The position numbers and the translations under genes were made by a program. The notes under the pieces were generated by a model. The model was not told where the DNA came from, ran no database searches, and worked only from the letters and a program-made list of their open reading frames with translations. DNA of 39,033 bases, from assembly GCA_026993805.1 (NCBI GenBank), contig JALWSA010000057.1, positions 57,788 through 96,820 of the forward strand. Reading direction: 5' to 3'. This stretch comes from Thermotogaceae bacterium. GTDB lineage: Bacteria > Thermotogota > Thermotogae > Thermotogales > Thermotogaceae. Below, in pieces: positions 627 through 19,053 of the stretch (positions are counted from its first letter, which is position 1; each line of letters opens with the position of its first letter).

Positions 627-654
627 TTGACAGAAAAGAAGCTGTTGGTATAAT
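627..654 (+). promoter_or_regulatory. Consensus sigma-A type promoter of the tRNA-Ala/Arg/Lys (and possibly infC) unit
   Basis: A perfect TTGACA at 627-632 and a perfect TATAAT at 649-654 are separated by 16 bp, with an extended -10 TGG just before TATAAT. The tRNA-Ala 5' end lies 14 nt after the -10 box. No other convincing promoter was found before infC, so this may also drive infC-rpmI-rplT. Confidence 0.9.
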
Positions 655-667
655 TTCCACTCGGCGT

Positions 668-743
668 GGGGGCGTAGCTCAGTTGGGAGAGCGCTACCAT
701 GGCACGGTAGAGGTCGTGGGTTCGAGTCCCATCGCCTCCACCA
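668..743 (+). tRNA. tRNA-Ala (GGC)
   Basis: A complete cloverleaf with CCA encoded. The acceptor GGGGGCG pairs with CGCCTCC and includes the G3:U70 wobble pair that marks alanine tRNAs. The anticodon loop ATGGCAC gives anticodon GGC, and the T loop TTCGAGT is canonical. It is first in a three-tRNA cluster downstream of a consensus promoter. Confidence 0.96.
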
Positions 744-779: not shown

Positions 780-854
780 GCCCCTGTAGTTCAACGGATA
801 GAACGGCGGATTCCTAATCCGCAGATGGAGGTTCGACTCCTCCCAGGGGCACCA
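780..854 (+). tRNA. tRNA-Arg (CCT)
   Basis: A complete cloverleaf with CCA encoded. The acceptor is GCCCCTG/CAGGGGC. The anticodon stem GCGGA/TCCGC encloses TTCCTAA, giving anticodon CCT, which reads AGG. The T arm is GGAGG-TTCGACT-CCTCC. It lies 36 nt after tRNA-Ala and 12 nt before tRNA-Lys. Confidence 0.95.
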
Positions 855-866
855 CGAAGGAGAGGT

Positions 867-942
867 GGGCCGTTAGCTCAACTGGTAGAGCACCTGATTC
901 TTAATCAGGGGGCTGCAGGTTCGAGTCCTGCACGGCCCACCA
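867..942 (+). tRNA. tRNA-Lys (CTT)
   Basis: A complete cloverleaf with CCA encoded. The acceptor is GGGCCGT/ACGGCCC. The anticodon stem CCTGA/TCAGG encloses TTCTTAA, giving anticodon CTT, which reads AAG. A run of seven T follows directly (943-949), but there is no separate terminator hairpin before the infC leader. Confidence 0.96.
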
Positions 943-949
943 TTTTTTT

Positions 950-1090
950 AAAACCAAGCGGAAACCGCCCGGTTTCCCACCTTCCGTCCGCTTGGGATGG
1001 AAGGTCAATATTGGTGAGTTTCTCTCCCCAGAAATTCGGGGAGACGGAGTTGTAAGGGAAGCGGGCGGAAAGCTCGCTTTAATTTTTATC
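950..1090 (+). promoter_or_regulatory. Structured infC operon leader with attenuator (L20/IF3-type autoregulation proposed)
   Basis: The 164-nt gap between tRNA-Lys and infC is full of pairable segments. GGAAACC 960-966 pairs with GGTTTCC 971-977. ACCTTCC 979-985 pairs with GGAAGGT 999-1005. TCTCCCC 1023-1029 pairs with GGGGAGA 1038-1044. A terminator hairpin lies at 1059-1079. The loop-side segment CCGCCCG (965-971) is perfectly complementary to CGGGCGG (1062-1068), which is the 5' arm of the terminator, so an antiterminator pairing is possible. L20-controlled infC-rpmI-rplT leaders with terminators are known in Firmicutes. That L20 or another factor acts here is inferred from the synteny and the structure. 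Confidence 0.7.
1059..1087 (+). terminator. Intrinsic terminator/attenuator upstream of infC
   Basis: An 8-bp stem, AAGCGGGC (1059-1066) with GCTCGCTT (1072-1079), has loop GGAAA and is followed by a T-rich tract interrupted by AA (to 1087). It ends 19 nt before the infC start, so it can only act as an attenuator of that operon. Confidence 0.75.
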
Positions 1091-1106
1091 AAAAGGAGGG
1101 GAAAGC

Positions 1107-1634
1107 ATCGCAGATAAGGTGGATCTTCCCAAGAACGAGGGTATAAAGGTTCCGAAGGTCAGAGTAGTGGACGAAAAAGGTAAGCAGGTAGGGATAATGC
1201 CCACATGGAAAGCGCTGGATCTTGCAAAAAGTAAGGGATTGGATTTGGTGCTGGTTGCCCCAAATGCAGATCCTCCGGTGGCTAAAATCATGAATTATGG
1301 AAAATACAAATACGAGCAGCAGAAAAAGATAAGGGAGGCTAAGAAGAAGCAGAAGAAGCAGCAACAAGTCAAGCAGATGAAATTCAGAGTGAAAATCGAT
1401 GAGCATGATTATCAGACCAAGTTGAAGCATATCAGGAGATTTCTGGAAGACGGTGCGAGGGTCAGGGTGGCAATAATGTTCATAGGGAGAGAGATAGTCT
1501 TTACCGAGAAGGGGAAAGAAATTTTGGATAGAGTTGCGCAGGATGTTTCGGATATAGCGGAGGTGGAAGCACCTCCAAAGTTAGAAGGAAGAGATATGTG
1601 GATGACATTAAAGCCAAAGAAGAAGGGGGAATGA
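1107..1634 (+). CDS. infC: Translation initiation factor IF-3 (probable AUC start)
   Basis: IF-3 binds the 30S subunit and checks start-codon/initiator-tRNA pairing. The protein has the usual two domains: an N-terminal domain beginning VPKVRVVDEKGKQVGIM, a Lys-rich linker (IREAKKKQKKQQQVK), and a C-terminal domain with EIVFTEKG. The first conventional start in frame is GTG at 1119, but the strong ribosome-binding site AGGAGG (1094-1099) is 19 nt from it. The in-frame ATC at 1107 sits 7 nt after the site, which gives a 175-residue protein. Rare AUU/AUC/AUA starts are a known feature of infC and underlie its autoregulation. It is first in the classic infC-rpmI-rplT operon and overlaps no upstream gene. 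The gene identity is certain and the start choice is strongly supported. Confidence 0.95.
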   Translation: MADKVDLPKNEGIKVPKVRVVDEKGKQVGIMPTWKALDLAKSKGLDLVLVAPNADPPVAKIMNYGKYKYEQQKKIREAKKKQKKQQQVKQMKFRVKIDEHDYQTKLKHIRRFLEDGARVRVAIMFIGREIVFTEKGKEILDRVAQDVSDIAEVEAPPKLEGRDMWMTLKPKKKGE

Positions 1635-1856: not shown

Positions 1857-2219
1857 ATGAGAGTTAAAAGAGCCGTTCACGCGAAGAAAAAGAGGAGGAA
1901 GGTATTAAAAGCTGCTAAGGGATATAGGGGAGCCCTTTCGAGAAGATACAAACTCGCGAGGCAGATGTACATAAGATCCGGTGTTGCGGCTTATGTTGAG
2001 AGAAAGAAGAAGAAAAGGAATATGAGAAAACTGTGGATAACCAGAATAAATGCAGCAGCCCGCCTCGAAGGAATGAAATACAGCGAACTCATACACGGCT
2101 TGAAACTCGCAGGTGTGGAGATAAACAGGAAGATGCTGGCAGACCTTGCTGTAAACGATTTCGACGCTTTCAGAAAATTTGTGGAGGTGGCAAGGGCTGC
2201 TCTTGAGGAGGCGAACTGA
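1857..2219 (+). CDS. rplT: Large ribosomal subunit protein bL20
   Basis: A 120-residue protein, as usual for bL20, a 23S rRNA-binding assembly protein that also represses its own operon in several bacteria. The N-terminal basic arm (MRVKRAVHAKKKRRKVLKAA) and the following GYRGALSRRYKLARQ and LWITRINAAAR segments are characteristic. GAGGAGGTG (1841-1849) precedes the ATG. It is last of infC-rpmI-rplT, and the next gene, mrp, begins 2 nt after its stop. Any L20-mediated control would act on the infC leader at 950-1090. Confidence 0.97.
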   Translation: MRVKRAVHAKKKRRKVLKAAKGYRGALSRRYKLARQMYIRSGVAAYVERKKKKRNMRKLWITRINAAARLEGMKYSELIHGLKLAGVEINRKMLADLAVNDFDAFRKFVEVARAALEEAN

Positions 2220-2221
2220 AG

Positions 2222-3118
2222 ATGAGCGAATTCGATGTCAGAGGGCCTGAAGATCCAAAGAAGAAAGAGCTTGAAGAAAGAAGAAAAAGGTTTTTGGAAG
2301 CGCAGCAGCGGAAGGCGCGCCTTAGAAAGAAAATGGAGGCAGTGAAGTATAAGGTGGCCGTTATGAGTGGAAAAGGCGGGGTTGGAAAGAGCACCGTAGC
2401 CGTGAACCTCGCCGTTGCCTTAGCTGAAGAAGGTTTTGAAGTTGGGCTTTTGGACCTCGATCTTCACGGACCAAATGTCGTGAGAATGTTGGGTATAAAG
2501 GAAAGACTCGGAGTGGATGAGGGAGAGATACTTCCCGCAAGATATAGCGATAACCTAAAAGCTGTGTCCATGGCTTTTCTTTTGGAAGAAGGCGCTCCTG
2601 TTATTTGGAGAGGTCCTATCAAGACCACCGCTGTTGAGCAGTTCTTGGCGGATGTAAGATGGGGAGACTTAGACTTCTTAGTTGTTGATCTTCCTCCTGG
2701 AACGGGTGACGAGGCATTAACACTTTATCAAAGTGTTCCAATAGATGGTGCCGTTATAGTTACCACCCCTCAGACAGTCGCTTTGGACGATGTGAGAAGG
2801 GCAATGAGATTTGTTTTAGAGATGAAGACAGCGCCGCTTTCGGCAAGCAAAAGCACGAGAATTTTAGGTGTCGTGGAGAACATGTCCTATTTTAGGTGTC
2901 CTGGAGGAGAGATCGTCCATCCTTTTGGACAGGGCGGTGCGGATAAACTTTCCGAGGAATACGAAGTGCCTGTTCTGGCCAGAATTCCCATGGACCCGAA
3001 AGCTCTTGAAATGATGGATCAAGGAATGCCGCCGGTTTCGTTCTACAGGGGAACAGAATTTGAAAAGGCTTTTAGAGAGCTCGTGGAGAATCTCCTCAAA
3101 GCGTTGAAAGGGGAATGA
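2222..3118 (+). CDS. mrp: Mrp/NBP35-family P-loop ATPase (Fe-S carrier family) lacking the CxxC pair
   Basis: A 298-residue member of the Mrp/ApbC/NBP35 family of dimeric ATPases that carry or insert Fe-S clusters. The deviant Walker A GKGGVGKST spans residues 50-58, with DLDLHGPNVVRML after it (about 78-90) and VDLPPGTGDE near residue 155. The first 40 residues are a highly charged, probably helical extension instead of the DUF59/MIP18 domain often found there. In typical members the NMSYF segment is followed by CPxC. Here it reads NMSYFRCPGG, with a single Cys (C226), the only Cys in the protein. An Fe-S carrier role is therefore uncertain. It is tightly packed between rplT and aspS. Confidence 0.9.
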   Translation: MSEFDVRGPEDPKKKELEERRKRFLEAQQRKARLRKKMEAVKYKVAVMSGKGGVGKSTVAVNLAVALAEEGFEVGLLDLDLHGPNVVRMLGIKERLGVDEGEILPARYSDNLKAVSMAFLLEEGAPVIWRGPIKTTAVEQFLADVRWGDLDFLVVDLPPGTGDEALTLYQSVPIDGAVIVTTPQTVALDDVRRAMRFVLEMKTAPLSASKSTRILGVVENMSYFRCPGGEIVHPFGQGGADKLSEEYEVPVLARIPMDPKALEMMDQGMPPVSFYRGTEFEKAFRELVENLLKALKGE

Positions 3119-19021: not shown

Positions 19022-19027
19022 ACCATC

Positions 19028-19053
19028 TTAAAAAAGGCGGGAATTCTCCCGCC
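19028..19053 (-). terminator. Intrinsic terminator after tRNA-Ser, before tRNA-Arg
   Basis: On the minus strand a 7-bp stem GGCGGGA/TCCCGCC with loop GAAT is followed by TTTTTT. It abuts the tRNA-Ser CCA end and ends about 7 nt before tRNA-Arg. It would make tRNA-Arg depend on read-through, or it may be a processing element. Confidence 0.8.

What the first reader, a model, noticed from the sequence alone, without database searches (positions are those of the whole stretch)
950..1090. infC leader with mutually exclusive terminator and long-range antiterminator pairing
CCGCCCG (965-971) and CGGGCGG (1062-1068) are perfect complements about 95 nt apart. The second segment is also the 5' arm of an intrinsic terminator, so the two structures compete. 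L20-dependent leaders of this logic are described in Firmicutes, and the E. coli L20 site uses a long-range pseudoknot. I do not know of a described version in this phylum.
Basis: partly seen in the sequence, partly recalled or inferred. Interest (0 to 1): 0.7.

Follow-up and report, generated by a model that had tools for sequence, protein, structure and literature searches.

The report
L20 attenuator behind a tRNA operon
The RNA in front of these translation genes is a self-regulating on/off switch already known for ribosomal protein L20 in Gram-positive bacteria and already noted in the Thermotoga group; what stands out is that throughout this phylum it sits directly behind tRNA genes and seems to share their promoter.

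Summary
CCGCCCG 965-971 and CGGGCGG 1062-1068 are perfect complements, and the real long-range helix is larger (13 pairs). It competes with hairpin H1 (960-977) and with the terminator (1058-1080). The element is a bL20 (L20) leader. Rfam RF00558 aligns over its full length (950-1091, 33.4 bits, E 6e-5), below the curated cut-off of 58.7, so default annotation misses it. A covariance model built only from 12 relatives finds 956-1087 at 63.2 bits; the next hit in the genome has 25.3. The architecture is present upstream of infC in essentially all Thermotogota genomes checked, with covariation in H1, H2, terminator and antiterminator. Cognate antiterminator arms pair better than arms swapped between genera (p = 2e-4). 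The claim that it is undescribed in this phylum is wrong: Sun et al. 2013 reported L20 motifs in Thermotogales. It is B. subtilis-type attenuation, not the E. coli pseudoknot. What I did not find described is the context: tRNA-Lys directly precedes the leader in 97 of 97 genomes, with a strong promoter before the tRNAs in 82 of 96 and none between tRNA-Lys and H1. The antiterminator partner also shifts from H1 to H2 in one family. L20 binding and termination were not tested.

The parts
627..654 (+). sigma-70-type promoter TTGACA-16-TATAAT (12 of 12) ahead of the tRNA genes; the only strong promoter-like site on this strand between here and infC
668..743 (+). tRNA-Ala(GGC)
780..854 (+). tRNA-Arg(CCT)
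867..942 (+). tRNA-Lys(CTT), directly upstream of the leader; tRNA-Lys in 97 of 97 loci with a complete upstream tRNA
956..958 (+). invariant AAG before H1 (96 of 96), inferred part of the L20 site
   Evidence: matches the AAG of the RF00558 consensus
960..977 (+). helix H1 GGAAACC-GCCC-GGTTTCC; the loop and 3' arm are also the 5' half of the antiterminator
979..1005 (+). helix H2 (11 pairs); its base holds the invariant CC/GG pairs
965..978 (+). antiterminator 5' arm (965-971 and 973-978)
1024..1044 (+). accessory hairpin CTCTCCCC...GGGGAG, absent from most relatives
1056..1068 (+). antiterminator 3' arm, overlapping the terminator 5' arm
1058..1080 (+). intrinsic terminator hairpin GAAGCGGGC-GGAAA-GCTCGCTTT
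1081..1088 (+). U-rich terminator tail AATTTTTA
1092..1101 (+). Shine-Dalgarno AAAGGAGGGG of infC
1107..1634 (+). infC (IF3), inferred ATC start codon
1637..1840 (+). rpmI (bL35)
1857..2219 (+). rplT (bL20), the expected ligand

Best explanation
This is a bL20 autoregulatory leader (Rfam RF00558 type) that controls read-through from the tRNA-Ala-Arg-Lys genes into infC-rpmI-rplT by transcription attenuation. As the leader is made, H1 and H2 fold first. When free L20 is scarce, the emerging 1056-1068 segment invades H1 (965-978), forming an antiterminator before the terminator 3' arm is made, and polymerase reads into infC. When L20 exceeds rRNA, it binds the AAG/H1/H2 junction, a mimic of its 23S site, and holds H1 closed. 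The 1058-1080 terminator then forms and transcription stops near 1087. Shown here: the sequences, their competition, their conservation and covariation, the gene context, and the predicted folding order. Inferred: L20 binding, the direction of regulation (by homology to B. subtilis), actual termination, and transcription from the tRNA promoter.
For: Full-length RF00558 alignment at 950-1091. RF00558 matches at E<=0.1 in 70 of 98 related infC loci, and in the B. subtilis, L. lactis and T. maritima controls. Held-out model: 63.2 bits at 956-1087, next hit in the genome 25.3. Covariation in the H1/H2/terminator state (8 pairs with changes on both sides, 22 cells; shuffles reached these in 3/500 and 0/500) and in the antiterminator, where one H1-loop/terminator pair is G-C in 11 and A-U in 5 sequences. 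Cognate arms -18.7 against permuted -14.4 +/- 0.44 kcal/mol over 37 genera, p = 2e-4. Both states have nearly equal energy (-63.2 and -61.6 kcal/mol at 37 C), and the antiterminator forms before the terminator 3' arm is made. Downstream genes are IF3, L35 and L20. No leader match and no tRNA at 19 infC loci of other phyla.
Against: The Rfam score is below the curated cut-off (33.4 of 58.7), and with strict filters the whole-genome RF00558 search misses this genome. The window's terminator stem has wobble pairs and is weaker than in relatives. The antiterminator differs from shuffled sequence at p<=0.05 in only 62 of 97 leaders taken singly, and only two of its 11 column pairs carry changes on both sides. 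Many pairs of both states are invariant, so they cannot be tested by covariation. No transcript or binding data.
Confidence: 0.9

Rival explanations
1. The hairpin is simply the constitutive terminator of the tRNA operon, infC has its own promoter, and the upstream complementarity is a by-product of G+C-rich stems.
For: The terminator does follow a tRNA operon with its own strong promoter, and individual duplex tests are often only weakly significant.
Against: Only 2 of 96 leaders have a strong promoter-like site between H1 and infC and none between tRNA-Lys and H1. Cognate arms pair better than swapped arms. H1, H2 and AAG are conserved and match the L20 leader model.
Confidence: 0.05
2. Attenuator with the same architecture, but the signal is not L20 (for example IF3, bL35, temperature or antibiotics).
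For: L20 binding was not tested. Other products of the operon could in principle act.
Against: The conserved AAG, H1/H2 junction and CC/GG pairs follow the RF00558 model of a leader characterised as L20-binding in B. subtilis, and rplT lies in the operon.
Confidence: 0.04
3. Translational control in which a pseudoknot or hairpin hides the Shine-Dalgarno site, as in E. coli.
For: In the full-length fold UUUCUCUCCCC near 1019-1030 can pair with the GGAGGGG Shine-Dalgarno region.
Against: That segment lies in an accessory hairpin absent from most relatives, whereas terminator and antiterminator are conserved. The E. coli site is a different structure acting on rpmI-rplT.
Confidence: 0.02

Closest known systems
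L20_leader, Rfam RF00558 / B. subtilis infC-rpmI-rplT L20-interacting RNA (Choonee et al. 2007, cited in PMC6097659)
   Same: AAG, H1 and H2 junction, long-range competition with an intrinsic terminator, located before infC-rpmI-rplT
   Different: Scores below the curated cut-off. H2 is a nearly continuous helix in this genus. The leader follows tRNA genes and shows no dedicated infC promoter, unlike B. subtilis. The antiterminator register varies between families
L20 motif in Thermotogales (Sun et al. 2013, PMC3766115)
   Same: Same family and phylum, reported from Rfam models and operon analysis
   Different: In the main-text passages read, that paper mentions neither the tRNA context nor a covarying antiterminator; its supplements could not be read
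E. coli L20 translational operator (long-range pseudoknot plus irregular hairpin; PMC10931766)
   Same: Same ligand, and also rRNA mimicry with a long-range pairing
   Different: Acts on translation of rpmI-rplT, not by attenuation ahead of infC; different structure
Deltaproteobacterial L20 leader candidate (Eckert and Weinberg 2020, PMC7247131)
   Same: Predicted rRNA mimic for L20 with two consecutive G-C pairs and an AA dimer
   Different: A different scaffold and a different phylum

Membership tests
RF00558 L20_leader | match to the covariance model | tested here: inconclusive
   Full-length match at 950-1091, 33.4 bits, E 6.3e-5, but the curated cut-off is 58.7. Only one relative reaches the cut-off (58.7)
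RF00558 L20_leader | position upstream of infC-rpmI-rplT | tested here: met
   IF3, L35 and L20 identified by Pfam
RF00558 L20_leader | H1 and H2 with conserved junction (AAG before H1, CC/GG at the base of H2) | tested here: met
   AAG 956-958, H1 960-977, H2 979-1005. AAG in 96 of 96 leaders. CC/GG invariant in alignment A1
RF00558 L20_leader | intrinsic terminator as last helix | tested here: met
   1058-1080 plus U-rich tail
RF00558 L20_leader | alternative antiterminator fold excluding H1 and the terminator | tested here: met
   965-978 with 1056-1068; energies and conservation
RF00558 L20_leader | binding of L20 and L20-dependent termination | not testable with these tools
   needs RNA and protein experiments
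E. coli L20 translational operator | pseudoknot overlapping the rpmI start region and translational repression | not tested
   the element lies before infC and ends in a terminator; the infC-rpmI junction was not examined for such a pseudoknot

The most novel reading that the evidence does not exclude
Throughout Thermotogota the L20 attenuator is the junction of a mixed operon: one strong promoter makes tRNAs ending with tRNA-Lys, and L20 decides whether the same transcript stops there or continues into infC-rpmI-rplT. The attenuator thus doubles as the tRNA terminator and ties ribosomal protein and IF3 synthesis to tRNA transcription. The antiterminator arm has been re-wired between families (H1 loop in most, H2 5' arm in family f9) while mutual exclusion was kept.
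Probability: 0.6. Interest if true: 0.5.

Novelty: new member of a known kind. Interest (0 to 1): 0.33.

Why it matters
It corrects the impression that this leader type is unknown here: the element is present in essentially the whole phylum and is hidden by a cut-off tuned on other lineages. A phylum-specific model finds leaders that RF00558 misses. The conserved tRNA-Lys/leader junction offers a testable case in which an r-protein attenuator terminates a tRNA operon and joins two arms of the translation machinery under one promoter. The family-specific rewiring of the antiterminator shows how a switch can keep its logic while its pairing partners change.

Tried and rejected
Rfam at gathering threshold finds only tRNAs in the window; the E-value mode was needed. 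Plastid-ycf2, YrlA and Vault matches overlap tRNA genes and were dismissed. My first script for H1 used the wrong 3' end and found 11; corrected (96 of 97). Terminators of L005, L020 and L084 were first mis-picked and were reset before the swap test. My first explicit antiterminator register for the window was off by one after the bulge ('False'); the fold and duplex results give the right one. Shine-Dalgarno sequestration was considered and rejected for lack of conservation. Choonee et al. 2007 is not held in the library, and supplements of the T. maritima transcriptome paper could not be opened, so its start-site data were not checked.

Full report
Identity of the region. The window is part of a 1.69 Mb genome whose relatives are Thermotogota (nearest named records are Thermotogaceae metagenome assemblies). 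Downstream of the finding lie infC (IF3), rpmI (L35) and rplT (L20), confirmed by Pfam. Upstream lie tRNA-Ala, tRNA-Arg and tRNA-Lys.

The observation. CCGCCCG is at 965-971 and CGGGCGG at 1062-1068, as stated. The fold of 941-1090 extends this to 13 pairs: 965-971 with 1062-1068 and 973-978 with 1056-1061, with G972 bulged. The terminator is 1058-1066/1072-1080 followed by AATTTTTATC. H1 is 960-966/971-977 and H2 is 979-989/995-1005. H1 and the terminator each exclude the long helix. The sequence folds 4.6 sd below shuffles.

Energetics. Forced into H1+H2+terminator the leader has -61.6 kcal/mol; its minimum-energy fold, which contains the antiterminator, has -63.2 (37 C). At 75 C the values are -22.0 and -26.5. 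Growing transcripts fold H1 and H2 at 1050 and pair the antiterminator fully by 1068, before the terminator 3' arm (1072-1080) exists. The unassisted leader is therefore predicted to read through, and a ligand that holds H1 shut is needed to terminate. That is the logic of the B. subtilis leader (PMC6097659). These are model energies, rough at high temperature.

Family. Rfam L20_leader (RF00558) aligns to 950-1091 over all 127 positions with 33.4 bits, E 6.3e-5, below the curated 58.7. In 98 related loci it matches at E<=0.1 in 70 (17, 18, 12, 12 and 11), all but one below the cut-off. Among 14 named control genomes it rings in B. subtilis, L. lactis and T. maritima. A model built from 12 relatives without the window finds the window element at 63.2 bits, 956-1087; the next hit in the genome has 25.3 bits. 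The same model finds 18 of 19 tested leaders from other Thermotogota families and none of 19 infC loci from other phyla at E<0.1. Rfam likewise finds nothing in those 19.

Conservation. Of 97 loci with a complete upstream tRNA, all have tRNA-Lys as that gene. H1 followed by its conserved junction was found in 96 and a terminator hairpin in all 97. AAG precedes H1 in 96 of 96, although it was not used in the search. The exception, L085, looks degenerate. In alignment A1 (17 leaders, 16 distinct) the H1/H2/terminator state is 96% paired with 8 pairs changed on both sides (3/500 shuffles reach this). The antiterminator is 90% paired; column pair 13-117, an H1-loop base with a terminator base, is G-C in 11 and A-U in 5 sequences with no exception. 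Over 37 genera, arms from the same genome bind at -18.7 kcal/mol against -14.4 +/- 0.44 for permuted arms, p = 2e-4, the smallest value 5000 permutations can give. Examples with unrelated sequence but kept complementarity are L086 (CCATTCG/CGAATGG) and L067 (GTCCGCCA/TGGCGGAC). Relatedness within families is not fully removed by these tests.

Rewiring. In most families the H1 loop and 3' arm form the antiterminator. In family f9 the H1 loop lacks the motif and the terminator arm pairs with the 5' arm of H2 (CCCGCC with GGCGGG). This rests on duplex predictions in a single family.

Genomic context. The gap from the tRNA-Lys end to H1 is 7 to 68 nt, median 17. A promoter-like site of at least 10 of 12 lies within 110 nt before the tRNA cluster in 82 of 96 leaders (two lack that sequence). 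Sites inside the tRNA cluster occur in 5, between tRNA-Lys and H1 in 0, and between H1 and infC in 2. In the window the site is a perfect TTGACA-16-TATAAT at 627-654. The 19 infC loci of other phyla have no tRNA at all. The simplest reading is one transcript with the attenuator at the tRNA/mRNA boundary. Searches of the paper library for this arrangement gave nothing relevant, which is weak evidence of novelty.

Prior knowledge. Sun et al. [quoted passage not shown] The near-universal presence at one syntenic site found here fits presence in the phylum ancestor, whatever the earlier source. Babina et al. 2018 (PMC6097659) still call the motif narrowly distributed to Firmicutes. Latif et al. 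2013 (PMC3636130) list 'leader sequences' among transcribed T. maritima RNAs without naming them in the passages read.

Verdict. A real L20 attenuator and a divergent member of a known family that is already reported in the phylum. The tRNA-linked architecture and the shifting antiterminator are the parts worth following.

Noticed in passing
1092-1109 and the infC starts of L003-L100: infC appears to start with ATC, ATT or ATA in all 97 leaders checked (ATC at 1107 here, with a good Shine-Dalgarno); 17 have a weak or unclear Shine-Dalgarno. Such starts are known for IF3 self-control in E. coli (own knowledge).
   Followed up: partly
627-942: The tRNA sets before the leader differ between genomes (Lys alone, Ala-Arg-Lys, Glu-Arg-Lys, Gln-Trp-Lys, His-Arg-Leu-Lys and others) but always end with tRNA-Lys.
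   Followed up: yes
1019-1030 and 1094-1104: In this genome UUUCUCUCCCC can pair with the infC Shine-Dalgarno region in the full-length fold; the segment is not conserved.
   Followed up: partly
L085 (family f6): A leader whose H1 motif could not be found although its sister L086 has a strong antiterminator with unusual sequence; possible loss or decay.
   Followed up: no
19026-19053: The held-out model also hits a 28-base terminator-like stretch (16 bits) between the window's tRNA-Arg and tRNA-Ser genes.
   Followed up: no
2222-3118: A NUBPL/Mrp-type ATPase gene starts directly after rplT and may be part of the same operon.
   Followed up: no
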